Source of the DNA: an uncultured Bacteroidia bacterium
Lineage (GTDB): Bacteria; Bacteroidota; Bacteroidia; Bacteroidales; UBA932
Assembly (NCBI GenBank): GCA_902780455.1
Contig: CACZFO010000031.1
Location: 1 to 38,451, forward strand
Length of the DNA stretch: 38,451 nt
Direction: 5' to 3'
Both the position numbers and the translations under genes were made by a program. Shown here one piece after another: positions 1 to 10,970 of this stretch. The notes beneath the pieces were generated by a model. That model was not told the origin of the DNA. It saw only the letters and a list, made by a program, of their open reading frames with translations, and did not search any database. Position 1 is the stretch's first letter. Each line of letters opens with the position of its first letter.

Positions 1-180
1 ACGGGACTGCAAGACAGCATTATGACATTTGGCGTTGTCCGAATCACGGGACTGCAAGACAGCATTATGACATTTGGCGTTGTCCGAATCACGGGACTGA
101 GAGACAGCATTATGATATTTAGCGTTGTCCGAATCACGGGACTGCAAGACAGCATTATGACATTTGGCACAGTCCGAATC
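1..180 (-). repeat. 45-bp tandem repeat, four units, coding
   Basis: Four head-to-tail 45-bp units start at 1, 46, 91 and 136. Units 1 and 2 are identical; units 3 and 4 differ by a few substitutions. Bases 181-225 align to the unit without gaps at roughly 60 percent identity, so the array seems to have grown from pre-existing coding sequence. The array may continue to the left of the window. Confidence 0.95.
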
Positions 181-282
181 AATTGACTGGAATTCAGTAT
201 TGTGAAACTGTTTTAAGTCTTCGTAATAGTGGGCAAAATTGTTATCAAAGAACAATTCCCCGGAATAAAGCAAGCCCTTCAT
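1..282 (-). CDS. Unknown protein with 15-residue tandem repeats, N-terminal part only (runs off the left edge)
   Basis: I do not recognise this protein. From an ATG at 282 the minus strand is open to the window edge, giving 94 codons without a stop. Residues 1-34 are unique (begins MKGLLYSGELFFDNN). Residues 35-94 are four 15-residue repeats of the form DSDNAKCHNAVLQSR; unit 1 has Cys in place of Asn and unit 2 has Tyr for Cys and Ser for Leu. Residues about 20-34 look like an older, diverged unit (HN and QS kept in register). The start is supported by a purine-rich AGAGGGG just upstream of the ATG and a promoter-like site about 70 bases further up. The repeat is exactly 45 bp, so its copy number can change without breaking the frame. 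The repeat is also open in one plus-strand frame, but only the minus frame has a start and ribosome-binding site. No signal peptide or membrane segment is seen. Confidence 0.6.
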   Translation of the reverse strand, partial: MKGLLYSGELFFDNNFAHYYEDLKQFHNTEFQSIDSDCAKCHNAVLQSRDSDNAKYHNAVSQSRDSDNAKCHNAVLQSRDSDNAKCHNAVLQSR

Positions 283-2773: not shown

Positions 2774-2998
2774 ACATTTCTTCTATTTACAGGACCTGGC
2801 CTTCTTTTACATAATCTGAAACATCTTCTGTTTACAGGGCCAAGCCTTCTTTTACATAATCTGAAAACAACTTCTGCTTACAGGACCAGGCCTTCTTTTA
2901 CATACTCTGAAACATCTTCTGTTTACAGGACCTGGCCTTCTTTTACATAATCTGAAACATCTTCTGTTTACAGGACTAGGCCTTCTGTTTACCGGGCC
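2774..2998. repeat. Intergenic 45-bp tandem array between tmk and the MauE/DoxX gene
   Basis: Four near-identical units begin at 2792, 2837, 2883 and 2928, of 45, 46, 45 and 45 bp; units 1 and 4 are identical. Partial units flank both sides (from 2774, and 2973 to about 2998). The array fills almost all of the 246-base gap between tmk and the next gene. The unit contains an AAAAGAAGG motif on the minus strand, so each copy carries a Shine-Dalgarno-like stretch in the direction of transcription. One minus frame is open across several copies (Arg/Cys-rich), but the 46-bp unit breaks it, so I do not call a gene. Apart from the array I see nothing in this gap. Confidence 0.93.
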
Positions 2999-6517: not shown

Positions 6518-6526
6518 CAAAATATA

Positions 6527-7432
6527 ATGAAACCTACACTTATAATCATGGCTGCCGGTATGGGCAGCAGGTACGGAGGGCTCAAACAGCTTGACGGCGT
6601 GGGACCCAAGGGAGAGACAATAATGGATTTTTCCATCTACGATGCGATTCAGGGCGGATTTGCTGACGTGGTTTTTGTAGTAAGGGAAAAGTTCAGGAAG
6701 GAATTTGAAGAAAAGGTTGCCTCCAAATTCAAAGGCAAGGTAAAATACACGATAGTTACACAGGAGCCCGACAATCTTCCTGAAGGCTTCAAGCCAAAGG
6801 CTCCAAGGGAGAAACCATGGGGCACGGGCCAGGCAGTCCTTTCTGCCAAGGACGTAATCAAAAGGCCGTTTGCAGTCATCAATTCCGATGACTTCTACGG
6901 CAGGGAGTCTTTCAAAGTGCTCTCCGATTACCTGAACGGTATCAAGGAGGGCGAAAAAGGCAACTTCTGCATGGTGGGCTTCAGCCTGAAGAACACATTG
7001 TCTGAATCTGGCAGCGTATCCAGGGGCATCTGCACTGTAGACAAGGACGGATTCCTGGTAAAGGTGGAAGAGCATTCCAACATACGCAGGGAAGAGAAAA
7101 AAATCCTGGGAGAGAACCTCAAGGGCGTAGAGCACAGCCTGGAGCCTTCAACTCCAACATCCATGAACATGTGGGGATTCACATCGGACTATCTGGAAGA
7201 ATCTGATGTCCTCTTCAGGGAATTCCTGAAACAGAACATAGACGAACCAAAGAAGGAGTTCTACGTTCCTTCAGTAGTAAGCACCATGATACAGGAGGGC
7301 TTGGCAACCGTAAGGGTTCTGAAGACCCCTTCCGCATGGTTTGGCGTAACCTACAAGGAAGACCGTGAAAAGGTTGTTTCAAAACTCAGGGAAATGACAG
7401 AAGACGGAACCTATCCTTCACCTCTTTTCTAG
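6527..7432 (+). CDS. Sugar-phosphate nucleotidyltransferase family protein
   Basis: 301 residues of the NTP_transferase fold. The nucleotide-binding signature AAGMGSRYGGLKQL is at residues 9-22, followed by ETIMDFSIYDA. GTGQAVLSAKDVI and VINSDDFYG (metal-binding Asp) occur mid-protein. Relatives form NDP-sugars from sugar 1-phosphates; the sugar is not evident. The start is the ATG at 6527, because the reading frame upstream (open from 6299) has no homology-like sequence, runs antisense to the DivIC gene and precedes the promoter box. It is the first gene of a probable three-gene operon (34 and 24 bases between genes) with the CPBP protease and the ManA-like protein. Confidence 0.85.
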   Translation: MKPTLIIMAAGMGSRYGGLKQLDGVGPKGETIMDFSIYDAIQGGFADVVFVVREKFRKEFEEKVASKFKGKVKYTIVTQEPDNLPEGFKPKAPREKPWGTGQAVLSAKDVIKRPFAVINSDDFYGRESFKVLSDYLNGIKEGEKGNFCMVGFSLKNTLSESGSVSRGICTVDKDGFLVKVEEHSNIRREEKKILGENLKGVEHSLEPSTPTSMNMWGFTSDYLEESDVLFREFLKQNIDEPKKEFYVPSVVSTMIQEGLATVRVLKTPSAWFGVTYKEDREKVVSKLREMTEDGTYPSPLF

Positions 7433-7466: not shown

Positions 7467-8420
7467 ATGAGCAGTTTTTTCCGGAAACCTCAGTTTTACA
7501 AGCCGGGAATAGGCGGAAGCATACTGATACTCCTGGTCCTTATCGTAGGTGGCGGAATCCTCGGAGCCATCATTCCGCTTGCCGTAGCGGCATTCAGCGG
7601 AGAGCTGACAACGGAAGTTCTTTCGCAGCCTGAAAAGATGGCAGCGGTACTCACGGGAAGGTTGTCGCTGAGTTACTTTTCCCAGATGATAATTCCTGTA
7701 ATCTTCATCTGGCTTGTAGGAAACGTAAAAAGCCAGAATCCTCTGGAAGCACCGGTAAGGGTAGATGCTCCACATATCGGAAGTTTCAACGTCCTGAGCC
7801 TGGGCTTCATTCTGCTGCTGATGACCCTCGGACTGAGCTGGGTTCTGGACCCCGTAACCAGTTTCTTCCCGATGCCGGACAGTTTCAAGGACATGTTTGA
7901 AAGCATTGGCTCCAAACCTTTTGACACCATACTTTCAGTTGCCATAATGGCCCCGTTGTTTGAAGAGTTCGTACTTAGGGGAACAATAGAAAGAGGCCTG
8001 CTTGCCAAAGGGTCCGTTGCCGTTGCCATCATCTGGTCGGCGCTGCTTTTCGGAATCATGCACATGAACCTGTGGCAAGCCATTCCGGCATTTGTAATAG
8101 GTTGCTTCCTGGGTTGGGTCTATTACCGCAGCCACAGCATCTGGGCCGTGATCTTAATACATTTCGTGAACAACTTCTCATCAATAATGATGTTCTGGGC
8201 TTTCCCGCAAATGGATCCGGAGGCTTCCTCAAGGGAGAACCTTGCCAACCTTACGGGAAGCGACGCATGGTACTGGATTCTTGTAGGCGCAGGCGCAGTG
8301 ATCGTTGCCGCCGGCATCTATCTTCTTGACAAGTATCTGCCAAAGAAGCCGCAGAGTTTCAAGCCAAAGGATGTTCTCCTGACCGGACCTGAAACCTTCA
8401 ACCCAAACCAGACTGTTTAA
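7467..8420 (+). CDS. CPBP-family intramembrane metalloprotease (CAAX protease-like)
   Basis: 317 residues with about eight membrane helices. The Abi/CPBP motifs (PF02517) are intact: FEEFVLRGTIERG near residues 160-173 (EExxxR), FGIMHMN near 193-199 (FxxxH), and IHFVNN near 230. The Glu and His residues would be the catalytic or metal site of an intramembrane endopeptidase. Substrates of bacterial members range from prenylated proteins to bacteriocins or signalling proteins; nothing here picks one. It is in an operon with the upstream nucleotidyltransferase and the downstream ManA-like protein. Confidence 0.9.
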   Translation: MSSFFRKPQFYKPGIGGSILILLVLIVGGGILGAIIPLAVAAFSGELTTEVLSQPEKMAAVLTGRLSLSYFSQMIIPVIFIWLVGNVKSQNPLEAPVRVDAPHIGSFNVLSLGFILLLMTLGLSWVLDPVTSFFPMPDSFKDMFESIGSKPFDTILSVAIMAPLFEEFVLRGTIERGLLAKGSVAVAIIWSALLFGIMHMNLWQAIPAFVIGCFLGWVYYRSHSIWAVILIHFVNNFSSIMMFWAFPQMDPEASSRENLANLTGSDAWYWILVGAGAVIVAAGIYLLDKYLPKKPQSFKPKDVLLTGPETFNPNQTV

Positions 8421-8444: not shown

Positions 8445-9608
8445 ATGAAAAAGATATATCCACTGCTTCTGGACTCAATGACTCCTGAAAGTACTGCCTC
8501 TAACGGTTTCCTAAAGGACAACTCACTGGATGACCTGATAGAGACATACATGGGCAACCTCCTGGGCGACAAGGTATTCACCTTCTTCCAGGGGAACCTT
8601 CCCGTAACCCTTGAAATAAAGGAAGAGAACGGCAAGAAAGGAAGGGGGAACATCTCCGTTTCTCCCGATGACCAGACCGCTCTTCCGCGTTACGGTTGCT
8701 GGGGAAAGGAGAGAATGATCTACATACTCTCAGCCGGGAAAGATTCTTCAATATGGATCGGTTTTGAAAAATCGCTTACAGCCACCGGTATCTACGAACG
8801 GTGTCAGGAAGGAACCATTCTTGAGGCCATGAACGAAATAGCTCCCGAAGAAGGAGAAACGTTCTACATCAGACCCGGTGAACCGTTCTGCATCGGCAAA
8901 GGAGTAAAGTATGTGGACCTCAGCCAGAACTCCCCCGTGGTTTTCAACATTGAAGACATGGAGCAGCTGGTAGAAGCTTTGGACTTCATCAACCTCGATT
9001 CATACATCCCGGAGTACATCGCACCTGAAGACTGCCTGTTCCGAATGGAAAGAGTTGCTATCACAAAGCCTCAGACCATTGCTCCGGACCAGACAGAAAG
9101 CTTCATGGCAATCATCAACCTCGACAATCAGACATCGCTGAGAGTGAAAGATTTGAGGGGCCTGCCGGAAACAACCGAAGAGAACTTCCTGGACCTCAAG
9201 TCCAATGCTAAAGACAGTGACAGCGGTTTTATGGCTCTTATACCTCACGACATCCAGGAACTTACCATTTCCCCAAGCCAGGGCGGAGAGAACCCTACGT
9301 CTTCATTCCTCCGCATCTATATGTGCAACGTCCCAGAACCGCCTAAGGAAGATGACGCAGAGGAGGATAGCCATGACGAGCATTGCCATGACGGGCATTG
9401 CCATGATGAACATTGCCATGACGAACATTGCCATGATGAACATTGCCATGACGGACATTGCCATGACGAGCATTGCCATGACGAACATTGCCATGACGGG
9501 CATTGCCATGACGAGCATTGCCATGATGGGCATTGCCATGACGGGCATTGCCATGATGAACATTGCCATGATGAACATTGCCATGACTCTAAACGTTATC
9601 TTAATTAA
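8445..9608 (+). CDS. ManA-fold pseudoenzyme (type I phosphomannose isomerase-like) with His/Cys-rich repeat tail
   Basis: 387 residues. Residues about 18-45 (SNGFLKDNSLDDLIETYMG, then NLLGDKVF) and the GKERMIYIL...GFEKSLT...GETFYIRPGEPFCIGKGV stretch follow the cupin fold of Bacteroidota class I phosphomannose isomerases almost motif by motif. The metal ligands appear lost: the usual Q-V-H-P is SVSP, the E of GKTEMW is Arg, and the His of AGRVHAIG is Phe. The N-terminal WGG region is also missing. I therefore do not expect isomerase activity. A weaker second cupin-like part (to about residue 298) ends LIPHDIQELTISPS. Residues 309-381 are fourteen five-residue units of the form HDEHC or HDGHC, then a short end KRYLN. 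The tail should bind Zn, Ni, Cu or similar ions. No signal peptide is seen, so the protein is likely cytoplasmic. It is the last gene of the nucleotidyltransferase-CPBP operon. Confidence 0.8.
   Translation: MKKIYPLLLDSMTPESTASNGFLKDNSLDDLIETYMGNLLGDKVFTFFQGNLPVTLEIKEENGKKGRGNISVSPDDQTALPRYGCWGKERMIYILSAGKDSSIWIGFEKSLTATGIYERCQEGTILEAMNEIAPEEGETFYIRPGEPFCIGKGVKYVDLSQNSPVVFNIEDMEQLVEALDFINLDSYIPEYIAPEDCLFRMERVAITKPQTIAPDQTESFMAIINLDNQTSLRVKDLRGLPETTEENFLDLKSNAKDSDSGFMALIPHDIQELTISPSQGGENPTSSFLRIYMCNVPEPPKEDDAEEDSHDEHCHDGHCHDEHCHDEHCHDEHCHDGHCHDEHCHDEHCHDGHCHDEHCHDGHCHDGHCHDEHCHDEHCHDSKRYLN
9369..9587 (+). repeat. 15-bp coding tandem repeat encoding CHD(E/G)H
   Basis: Fourteen 15-bp units plus a partial one encode SHDEH then CHDEH/CHDGH. 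Units differ only at the Asp third base (gac/gat) and in the next codon (gag, gaa, ggg, gga). The mixed order of these variants points to repeated slippage or unequal exchange. All three plus-strand frames stay open, so other apparent reading frames here are by-products. Confidence 0.97.
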
Positions 9609-9727: not shown

Positions 9728-10105
9728 ATGGACACAGTAAGAATAGACAAATACCTTTGGGCCATCAGGGTCTTCAAGACCCGGAGCGAAGCTGCTGAAG
9801 CCTGCCGCACAGGCAAAGTGTCAGTCAACGGAGCCCAGGCAAAATCGTCGAGAGACATCAAGAGTGGAGATTCCATAGAAGTGCGAAAGGGAGCAATCCA
9901 TTTCAGCTACATTGTCATTGAGCCTGTAGACAAACGCCAGGGGGCCAAGTTGGTGGACCAGTATGCACAAAATACGACTCCTCAAAGCGAACTTGACAAA
10001 CTGGTTGCCCCGGTTGAGACAATCTTCCTTAAAAGAGAAAGAGGCAGCGGACGTCCTACGAAGAAGGAACGCCGTGACATTGACCGCCTTATGGATGGTT
10101 TCTAG
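9728..10105 (+). CDS. hslR: S4-domain RNA-binding protein, Hsp15 family
   Basis: 125 residues. An S4 RNA-binding domain fills residues 5-65 (RIDKYLWAIRVFKTRSEA, then GKVSVNG and the GDSIEV turn), followed by a basic C-terminal tail (RGSGRPTKKERRDIDRL) as in Hsp15. Hsp15 binds dissociated 50S subunits carrying a nascent chain and helps recycle them. The context fits: pth, which also handles peptidyl-tRNA from stalled translation, is convergent with a one-base gap, followed by rplY. The ATG at 9728 begins the typical N-terminus MDTVRIDKYLW. The 119 bases upstream hold no clear promoter box. Confidence 0.9.
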   Translation: MDTVRIDKYLWAIRVFKTRSEAAEACRTGKVSVNGAQAKSSRDIKSGDSIEVRKGAIHFSYIVIEPVDKRQGAKLVDQYAQNTTPQSELDKLVAPVETIFLKRERGSGRPTKKERRDIDRLMDGF

Positions 10106-10106
10106 A

Positions 10107-10970
10107 TTATTCTTTGCTGTATTTCCTGAAAAGATTCAGAAGCTTTTCCCTGAACGAAGTAACCGGCTCATCGGTGTCTTGCTGATGACCGGACTCTCTT
10201 GCATTCTGTTCTGAAACACTTTGCCTGAAGTTTTTGGTTTCTCCTTTAGGCCCACAAGAGGTTTGCTGACGCTGTGGCGTTTCTTCCGTCTGACCGCAAG
10301 GGGTTTGCTGACGCTGTGGCGTTTCTTCCTTCTGTCCGGAAAGGGTTTGGTGATGCCGTGGCTTTACTTCCTCAGGCTCAGAAGATGGTTTGTTTTTCCG
10401 GGGATCCGTGTTGCAGATGTTCATCGCACGGTCTGCTCCCATGAATGTGAAATCCTTTACACCTTGAGCGGCACGTTTTAAAACTTCCGGGAGCATAGCA
10501 GCTTCTTCTCCCTCAAAATGCCCCAGCACATAGTCTACCTGTCCGCCACGAGGGAATCCATTGCCTATCCCAACCCGGATGCGGCAGTAATCCGATGTGC
10601 CCAGGACCTGGTTTATGTTTCCCAGACCGTTGTGTCCGCCGTCGCTCCCTTTCTTACGCATACGTACGCTGCCAACAGGGAGAGCAAGATCATCGCAGAT
10701 GACTATGAGATTCTCTTTCTGGATGTTCTCCTTCTGCAACCAGTAGCTGACAGCCTTGCCGCTGAGATTCATGTAAGTGGATGGTTTCAGGAGAATCAGT
10801 TTGCTGCCTCTGTAAGAGATTTCAGCAATGCTTCCAAGACGGTCCGTCTTGAAGACCGCACCGGCATCTTCAGCAAGATAGTCCACAACCATGAAGCCGA
10901 TGTTGTGGCGAGTGCCGGCATATTCCGAACCGATGTTTCCAAGTCCTGCTATGAGATATTTTCCTGCCAT
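10107..10970 (-). CDS. pth: Peptidyl-tRNA hydrolase with repeat-bearing C-terminal extension
   Basis: Cleaves peptidyl-tRNA released from stalled ribosomes. Residues 1 to about 188 are a complete bacterial Pth: GLGNIGSEYAGTRHNIGF with the catalytic His22, LLKPSTYMNLSG, the catalytic Asp of CDDLALPVG near residue 93, and GGHNGL. Standard Pth ends near 190 residues, but this protein has 287. The extra part begins after DRAMNICNTDP and contains Gln/Thr/Pro/Glu-rich 14-residue repeats (EETPQRQQTPCGQT type). It closes with the basic amphipathic segment SFREKLLNLFRKYSKE. I read the tail as a flexible linker with a terminal helix that could bind a membrane or ribosome (inference). It lies downstream of rplY, a common bacterial order. 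Confidence 0.93.
   Translation of the reverse strand: MAGKYLIAGLGNIGSEYAGTRHNIGFMVVDYLAEDAGAVFKTDRLGSIAEISYRGSKLILLKPSTYMNLSGKAVSYWLQKENIQKENLIVICDDLALPVGSVRMRKKGSDGGHNGLGNINQVLGTSDYCRIRVGIGNGFPRGGQVDYVLGHFEGEEAAMLPEVLKRAAQGVKDFTFMGADRAMNICNTDPRKNKPSSEPEEVKPRHHQTLSGQKEETPQRQQTPCGQTEETPQRQQTSCGPKGETKNFRQSVSEQNARESGHQQDTDEPVTSFREKLLNLFRKYSKE
10219..10386 (-). repeat. 42-bp coding tandem repeat in the pth C-terminal extension
   Basis: Two nearly perfect 42-bp units (10261-10302 and 10303-10344) are flanked by degenerate units on both sides (10219-10260 and 10345-10386). Each encodes 14 residues, so copy-number change keeps the frame. Confidence 0.9.

What the first reader, a model, noticed from the sequence alone, without database searches (positions are those of the whole stretch)
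8445..9608. Catalytically dead phosphomannose-isomerase fold carrying a 14-unit His/Cys metal-binding tail
Seen: the body follows class I ManA motif by motif, but the Q-V-H-P, E of GKTEMW and H of AGRVHAIG positions are Ser/Ser, Arg and Phe, and the WGG N-terminal part is missing. The last quarter is CHD(E/G)H repeated fourteen times. Known: the replaced residues are zinc ligands in ManA, and His/Cys-rich tails store or deliver Ni, Zn, Cu or Co. Inference: a sugar-phosphate-sensing or scaffold cupin was joined to a metal buffer, perhaps in the same process as the operon's nucleotidyltransferase and CPBP protease. I know of no described protein with this combination.
Basis: partly seen in the sequence, partly recalled or inferred. 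Interest (0 to 1): 0.82.

Follow-up and report, generated by a model that had tools for sequence, protein, structure and literature searches.

The report
Dead sugar enzyme, surviving metal-binding tail
In one lineage of gut Bacteroidales, a gene in the usual place of a sugar-phosphate isomerase encodes a protein without that enzyme's zinc-holding residues but still with its relatives' histidine/cysteine-rich tail, and it likely works as a metal buffer or chaperone, the enzyme's job likely having passed to another gene.

Summary
ORF 8445-9608 is a class I phosphomannose isomerase (ManA) fold (best PDB matches are ManA). It lacks the His, Glu and His zinc ligands, the catalytic Arg and the WGG part, and ends in a Cys-His-Asp repeat.

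The tail is not unique. 24 of 28 ligand-less rows (window included) keep a His/Cys-rich tail, and so do 7 of 7 same-genus rows with intact ligands. So in this genus the tail most simply came first and the catalytic site died later.

The gene sits in the manA slot (CPBP upstream in 26 of 26 distinct scored ligand-less loci). 26 of 27 ligand-less genomes carry a substitute candidate (20 a second ManA, 6 a ManC-PMI-like protein); 0 of 7 intact genomes do. The body is under purifying selection like intact copies and has 18 new conserved residues.

I infer a cytosolic, most likely zinc, buffer or chaperone. Metal binding, the metal and loss of activity are untested. Hydrogenase-type nickel delivery is disfavoured: no HypB above cut-off in 39 genus genomes.

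Verdict: new variant of a known kind (His/Cys-tailed proteins such as SlyD, HspA), as a pseudoenzyme.

The parts
8445..9608 (+). pManA: 387-aa phosphomannose-isomerase-fold pseudoenzyme with His/Cys tail
8445..9344 (+). folded body, residues 1-300 (PMI-type cupin fold)
   Evidence: blocks of ten residues with mean pLDDT 82-98 up to residue 300, except one at 68 (residues 251-260); dN/dS about 0.1 in the clade
8655..8663 (+). S71-V-S73, where ManA has Gln-x-His (zinc ligands)
   Evidence: alignment columns Q and H1; alignments to PDB ManA
8712..8714 (+). R90, where ManA has Glu (zinc ligand)
   Evidence: column E: Arg in 19 of 21 core-clade rows
8886..8888 (+). F148, where ManA has His (zinc ligand)
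   Evidence: column H2: Phe in 19 of 21 core-clade rows
9370..9587 (+). 15-bp tandem array coding the CHD(E/G)H tail, 14.5 copies; every His codon of the tail CAT, every Cys codon TGC
   Evidence: TRF; codons; pLDDT under 50 from residue 318
7467..8420 (+). CPBP intramembrane protease-family gene, 24 nt upstream of pManA
   Evidence: PF02517 80.3 bits; neighbour of manA in the genus and in 11 of 20 scored other genera
6524..7432 (+). NTP_transferase-family gene, 34 nt upstream of the CPBP gene
   Evidence: PF00483 28.8 bits; neighbour in the genus and in 17 of 63 loci of other genera
9728..10105 (+). S4-domain gene (Hsp15-like, name recalled), 119 nt downstream; a marker of the slot
   Evidence: PF01479 39.7 bits

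Best explanation
This is the protein of the manA gene slot of its family: it lacks the zinc ligands, catalytic Arg and WGG part of phosphomannose isomerase, keeps a His/Cys-rich tail like that of relatives with intact ligands, and likely serves as a cytosolic zinc (transition-metal) buffer or chaperone. Shown by comparison: tails on same-genus relatives with intact ligands; ligand loss in one clade of the genus; a body under purifying selection with new conserved residues at the old pocket; a substitute isomerase candidate in nearly every genome of that clade. Inferred: in the ancestor the tail would have bound metal beside a working zinc enzyme; once a second PMI had taken over isomerisation the zinc site decayed to Ser, Arg and Phe; the tail, each CHD(E/G)H unit offering Cys, His, Asp and His donors, would hold several metal ions loosely, while the conserved body would act as a stable carrier that docks to partner proteins.
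For: Fold. Ligand loss: 0 of 21 core-clade rows keep any of H, E, H, and the Arg column is a gap in 21 of 21. Tail (5 or more His+Cys) in 24 of 28 ligand-less rows and 7 of 7 intact rows of the genus; of these 31 tails 21 show no DNA tandem repeat and 30 use both His codons, so composition is not merely slippage. Trees: ligand-less clade 100/100, genus slot clade 100/99, wider clades that include tailed intact enzymes 99/93 and 98/89 (55 rows). TIGR00218 bits: 126 and 118 in intact siblings, 83, 52, 43, 43, 28 and none in ligand-less relatives, 19 in the window. Slot: CPBP and NTP-transferase upstream in 27 of 27 scored ligand-less loci, 26 of 26 distinct (L037 and L129 are one place), and in 7 of 7 intact siblings. 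Substitutes: 26 of 27 against 0 of 7 (p 1.5e-6 uncorrected for kinship). dN/dS medians 0.05-0.13 in six ligand-less groups against 0.076-0.109 in three groups with intact ligands. Own genome: a query made of such tails matches only this array. Nickel: HypB over cut-off in 0 of 39 genus genomes.
Against: No metal binding is measured, and the neighbours examined are not metal-homeostasis genes. 4 of 28 ligand-less rows have lost all or nearly all of the tail and keep the body (L017, L111, L119, L020), and the body is better conserved than the tail, so the tail may not be the main function. Tail presence changes at least 7 times on the 83-row tree, and many intact enzymes of other genera have none, so tails come and go and may have arisen more than once. 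3 of 37 genus genomes have no ManA-like match, so the gene is dispensable or missed in drafts. The link between ligand loss and a substitute rests on about three changes and cannot be tested on the tree; 7 of 64 intact rows there also have a substitute. G003 (87% complete) is ligand-less with no substitute found. The second ManA of the own genome also scores under the TIGR00218 cut-off (94.5 against 116.2) with intact ligands, so a low score alone does not show death.
Confidence: 0.48

Rival explanations
1. Pseudoenzyme regulator: the body still binds a sugar phosphate, the second isomerase or the neighbouring nucleotidyltransferase and adjusts sugar-nucleotide synthesis; the tail is a secondary metal-responsive or solubility feature.
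For: Body under strong purifying selection; 18 new conserved residues, several at the old pocket (73, 90, 147, 148, 162, 164), and Lys88 kept in 21 of 21; tail lost in 4 of 28 rows while the body stays; nucleotidyltransferase gene upstream in 26 of 26 distinct scored ligand-less loci.
Against: The catalytic Arg, the WGG part and the His/Glu/His set are gone, so much of the substrate site is missing. The nucleotidyltransferase also neighbours manA with His/Glu/His in the genus and in genera g34, g36, g40 and g45. Seven ligand-less genomes show no second ManA to regulate.
Confidence: 0.27
2. SlyD-like nickel chaperone: the tail collects nickel for a nickel enzyme.
For: The tail's composition (29 His, 14 Cys, 16 Asp) resembles the E. 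coli SlyD extension, 13 His and 6 Cys, binding up to 7 Ni (PMC7840056, passage).
Against: HypB (TIGR00073) passes its cut-off in 0 of 39 genus genomes, against 4 of 14 control genomes. PF02492 (cobW class) matches in the 25 genus genomes stay under 36 bits except in G007 (161 bits, no pManA); the own genome's 30-bit match is Ffh (601 bits to TIGR00959). G035 was not and may hold a cobW-class GTPase (28 bits to hypB in a 419-aa frame), so absence is not total. Urease and nickel transport were not searched.
Confidence: 0.09
3. Still an enzyme: a metal site re-formed elsewhere in the cupin, or a changed isomerase or epimerase activity.
For: Strong conservation of the body and new conserved residues around the pocket.
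Against: No His or Cys reaches 90% in the body of the core clade (best H268 17 of 21, C85 and C197 16 of 21), so a new strictly conserved zinc site is unlikely; substitute candidates exist in 26 of 27 genomes.
Confidence: 0.08
4. Non-functional remnant: a decaying manA with a slippage-made repeat.
For: The window's array is a near-perfect 15-bp repeat with one codon each for His and Cys and variable copy number.
Against: dN/dS medians 0.05-0.13, as in copies with intact ligands; long open frames in 28 ligand-less rows; 21 of 31 tails show no DNA tandem repeat.
Confidence: 0.05

Closest known systems
Class I mannose-6-phosphate isomerase ManA (TIGR00218; PDB 1qwr, 1zx5, 3h1m)
   Same: Fold, gene slot, sequence motifs along the body, a graded series of relatives
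   Different: No zinc ligands, no catalytic Arg, no WGG part, far below the family cut-off, His/Cys tail
SlyD metallochaperone (E. coli, H. pylori)
   Same: A housekeeping-type domain followed by a His/Cys/Asp-rich C-terminal extension (PMC7840056, passages)
   Different: Cupin, not FKBP/IF; no HypB partner found; metal binding untested
HspA (GroES) of Helicobacter pylori
   Same: A lineage-specific C-terminal His/Cys-rich extension on a housekeeping protein, acting as a nickel sequestration domain (PMC7840056, passage)
   Different: HspA is described there as a chaperone homologue, whereas pManA has lost its enzyme family's catalytic residues
Catalytically inactive cupins: seed storage proteins
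   Different: Different branch of the fold; no metal tail mentioned in the passages seen
Ts-PCHTP, poly-Cys and His-tailed metalloprotein of Trichinella
   Same: Natural His tail with Cys-rich parts, binds Fe, Ni, Zn; storage or transport proposed (PMC2954182, abstract)
   Different: Eukaryotic; no homology to other proteins reported there

Membership tests
Class I mannose-6-phosphate isomerase (ManA) | PMI cupin fold | tested here: met
   250 of 387 residues at pLDDT 90 or more; top Foldseek and VIA matches are PMI
Class I mannose-6-phosphate isomerase (ManA) | Zinc ligands His, Glu, His (plus a Gln that varies) | tested here: not met
   S73, R90, F148
Class I mannose-6-phosphate isomerase (ManA) | Catalytic Arg of the YDWxR motif and WGG N-terminal motif | tested here: not met
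   columns lost in the core clade
Class I mannose-6-phosphate isomerase (ManA) | NCBIfam TIGR00218 cut-off (116.2 bits) | tested here: not met
   19.2 bits; note that the own genome's second ManA, ligands intact, also misses it at 94.5
Class I mannose-6-phosphate isomerase (ManA) | Isomerase activity | not testable with these tools
   needs an assay; loss is predicted from residues and from substitutes
SlyD-type metallochaperone | FKBP prolyl-isomerase domain | tested here: not met
   no Pfam family; fold is PMI
SlyD-type metallochaperone | His/Cys-rich C-terminal extension | tested here: met
   29 His and 14 Cys in the last 82 residues
SlyD-type metallochaperone | Divalent metal binding by the extension | not testable with these tools
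   needs purified protein
SlyD-type metallochaperone | HypB partner in the genome | tested here: not met
   own genome: no TIGR00073 match; its stronger PF02492 match is Ffh; the genome is 96.87% complete

The most novel reading that the evidence does not exclude
A zinc metalloenzyme was turned, in its own operon slot, into a dedicated metal buffer/chaperone: the metal-binding tail came first, a substitute isomerase took over catalysis, the catalytic zinc site was overwritten by Arg and Phe, and the tail outlived it, with living relatives preserving the steps.
Probability: 0.42. Interest if true: 0.8.

Novelty: new variant of a known kind. Interest (0 to 1): 0.64.

Why it matters
Pseudoenzymes are usually seen only as end points. 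Here one family holds intact-looking tailed enzymes, partly decayed ones and fully ligand-less ones at the same gene position, with a substitute gene visible in the genome. That makes the question 'does a metal tail on a metalloenzyme open the way to a new, non-catalytic job?' directly testable with a handful of purified proteins. If the metal role holds, it adds a buffer or chaperone class to gut Bacteroidales.

Tried and rejected
Rejected: tail as a peculiarity of one assembly; tail joined to an already dead cupin (intact tailed siblings); special link to the CPBP protease or nucleotidyltransferase (inherited neighbours); a relocated strictly conserved zinc site in the body; decaying pseudogene; viral relatives (viral contigs: 11 stretches matched a pattern, none encodes a relative). 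A test of ligand loss against substitute presence on the tree has no power: 3 changes, 2 independent pairs on supported branches, of which one goes the same way and one shows no difference. Pockets could not be compared, as model coordinates are not readable here. Literature, judged from listings: phosphomannose isomerase with histidine-rich (4 papers, none on this), pseudoenzyme with histidine-rich and metal (1 paper, unrelated), SlyD with nickel (42 papers, 12 listed), mannose-6-phosphate isomerase with pseudoenzyme (none), with Zur and zinc (13 papers, the 10 listed unrelated), general His/Cys storage (336 papers, 12 listed), zinc-ligand search (7 papers), Bacteroidales with His-rich tail (none). 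So no description was found in these searches of an open-access library only. Papers opened: PMC2954182 (abstract and outline), PMC9602691, PMC7840056, PMC8382915 and PMC3765361 (passages).

Row choices: alignment A2 holds the window and 16 of the 26 proteins; P0023 (fusion, likely misassembly) and near-duplicates were left out. 4 of 200 distinct ManA-like frames under 250 aa were left out of the alignment. Trees used 165, 83, 55 and 94 rows. I first treated L076 as an outgroup; one search showed that it is identical to L143, the second ManA of genus genome G002, so it is an ingroup second ManA. In one search G011 was missing and type II substitutes were sought only in the window's genus; the counts 27 and 20 include G011. 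In one search I had grouped other genera after seeing their neighbours; one search gives the ungrouped count. That check also corrected the distinct-locus count to 26, replaced a guess about the weak cobW match by a test (Ffh), and added the HypB search.

Full report

ACTIVE SITE. 1pmi holds zinc by Gln111, His113, Glu138 and His285 (PMC3765361, passage). In the window these columns are Ser71, Ser73, Arg90 and Phe148 (the match of 1pmi numbers to columns is by motif, partly recalled). In a set of 24 intact-ligand relatives that I chose, 59 body columns are at least 95% conserved; in the 21-row ligand-less core clade 22 of these 59 fall below 10%, including all four ligand columns, the YDWxR Arg and the WGG motif, while 19 of 59 stay at 90% or more. 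The core clade also has 18 positions conserved at 90% or more that are rare in the intact set, among them 73 Ser, 90 Arg, 147 Pro, 148 Phe, 162 Asn and 164 Pro. No His or Cys in the body reaches 90% in that clade, so a moved, strictly conserved zinc site is unlikely.

TAIL. TRF finds 14.5 copies of 15 bp at 9370-9587. All tail His codons are CAT and all Cys codons TGC, a mark of recent expansion; P0001, 98% identical in alignment A1 (94% by BLASTP), has 11 HCHD words against 14. A query made of such tails finds only this array in the own genome, at E up to 10. Across relatives the tails align poorly but keep their composition: of 31 tails in the genus, 30 use both His codons and 21 show no DNA tandem repeat.

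FAMILY AND TREE. 26 database proteins match. In the window's genus (37 genomes), 34 have the gene: 27 ligand-less, 7 with intact ligands; 3 (G005, G007, G025) have no ManA-like match. On body-only trees the ligand-less rows form one clade (100/100), beside the intact tailed rows of the genus, whose own grouping is weak (92/41); together they form a clade at 100/99 (same picture). Tails with 5 or more His+Cys occur in 24 of 28 ligand-less rows (27 genomes plus one named MAG, window included) and in 7 of 7 intact rows, and on some intact enzymes of genera g26, g28, g29, g35, g39, g42 and g46, while others there have none. Tail presence changes at least 7 times on the 83-row tree, so single origin is not shown; within the genus an ancestral tail is the simplest reading. 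Decay is graded: TIGR00218 scores 126 and 118 in intact siblings, 83 in L099 (of the three strict ligands only Glu replaced, though WGG and Arg are gone), 52, 43, 43, 28 and none in other ligand-less rows. These are different living lineages, so the order of steps is inferred. Named ligand-less relatives (L022-L038) are mostly rumen, omasum or reticulum MAGs by title; the wider intact relatives include Candidatus Cacconaster and Candidatus Equibacterium.

GENE SLOT. CPBP and, before it, the NTP-transferase gene lie upstream on the same strand in 27 of 27 scored ligand-less loci (26 distinct places) and in 7 of 7 intact siblings; 3 ligand-less loci were too near a contig edge. The S4 gene follows in 25 of the 27. 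In other genera of the family, CPBP is upstream in 40 of 63 scored slot loci, every scored locus of 11 genera and none of 9, the NTP-transferase in 17 of 63 and the S4 gene downstream in 43 of 63. The pseudoenzyme thus occupies the inherited manA slot of its branch.

SUBSTITUTES. 20 of the 27 ligand-less genomes carry a second class I ManA elsewhere, outside the slot clade. The 15 copies read in full have intact ligands; those of G001, G016, G021, G023 and G034 were not read in full, and that of G016 lies in two frames. Six of the other seven genomes carry a PF01050 ManC-PMI-type protein (TIGR01479 is the best model but under its cut-off, 209-245 against 373, in the four checked, three of them from these six genomes). 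Only G003 (87% complete) has neither. None of the 7 intact genomes has either. Uncorrected p is 1.5e-6, but the tree holds only three changes, so kinship prevents a formal test. In genera g40 and g46 a second ManA is present while some slot copies still keep His/Glu/His (7 rows) and four others in g46 (L101, L179, L225, L228) do not, as expected if the substitute comes first.

SELECTION. Body dN/dS (Nei-Gojobori) has medians of 0.103 (44 of 45 pairs finite), 0.054, 0.08, 0.079, 0.12 and 0.133 in six ligand-less groups, against 0.109 (6 of 15 pairs finite) in intact tailed siblings, 0.106 (20 of 21) in second ManAs and 0.076 (3 of 3) in intact tailed g39 enzymes. Synonymous sites are near saturation in many pairs, so these are rough, but they speak against a drifting remnant.

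MECHANISM. Inferred: a metal-binding tail on a zinc enzyme gave a second, metal-handling use; after a substitute PMI was present the catalytic site was lost, and the protein remained for the metal role, the body as a docking carrier. Zinc is favoured because the ancestor is of a zinc-enzyme family and because HypB passes its cut-off in 0 of 39 genus genomes. In the 25 genus genomes, cobW-class matches stay under 36 bits except in G007, which has no pManA; the own genome's stronger match is Ffh. G035, not, may hold a cobW-class GTPase. The strongest counter-points are that the body is more conserved than the tail and that 4 of 28 rows have lost the tail. A regulatory role of the body is therefore the main rival. 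Related designs in print are SlyD and the H. pylori GroES homologue HspA (PMC7840056, passages).

Noticed in passing
window 10107-10372 (-): The peptidyl-tRNA hydrolase gene carries a C-terminal extension made of about 14-aa repeats (42-bp tandem units, TRF 10237-10372).
   Followed up: no
window 1-282 (-): A 45-bp tandem array codes 15-aa repeats (QSRDSDNAKCHNAVL-like) in an ORF that runs off the window edge.
   Followed up: no
window 2779-2992: Another 45-bp tandem array (4.7 copies) in the gap between two minus-strand ORFs; with the other arrays it suggests active repeat expansion in units of three.
   Followed up: no
L101, L179, L225, L228 (genus g46): Loss of ManA zinc ligands in another genus that also has a second ManA; L101 keeps a tail with 20 His+Cys, the other three have 0 or 1.
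   Followed up: partly
G007 and G025: Genus members with no ManA-like match, each with a ManC-PMI-type protein; G007 also has a true cobW-class GTPase match (161 bits).
   Followed up: partly
G035 (L119, L257): A ligand-less slot protein without a tail, in a genome with a ManC-PMI-type protein and a possible cobW-class GTPase (28 bits to hypB, 419-aa frame).
   Followed up: no
P0009-P0011, P0013, P0014, body between residues about 250 and 262: Low-complexity repeats (SNACNS-like, NTQDGN-like) are inserted in the body in some relatives, a second repeat-expansion spot in this protein.
   Followed up: no
P0023: The N-terminal half of the family is fused to a membrane-protein-like sequence, probably a chimeric assembly.
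   Followed up: no
L013 (G027), end of the tail: The His/Cys tail ends in a Thr/Ile-rich stretch that looks like the same DNA repeat read in another frame.
   Followed up: no
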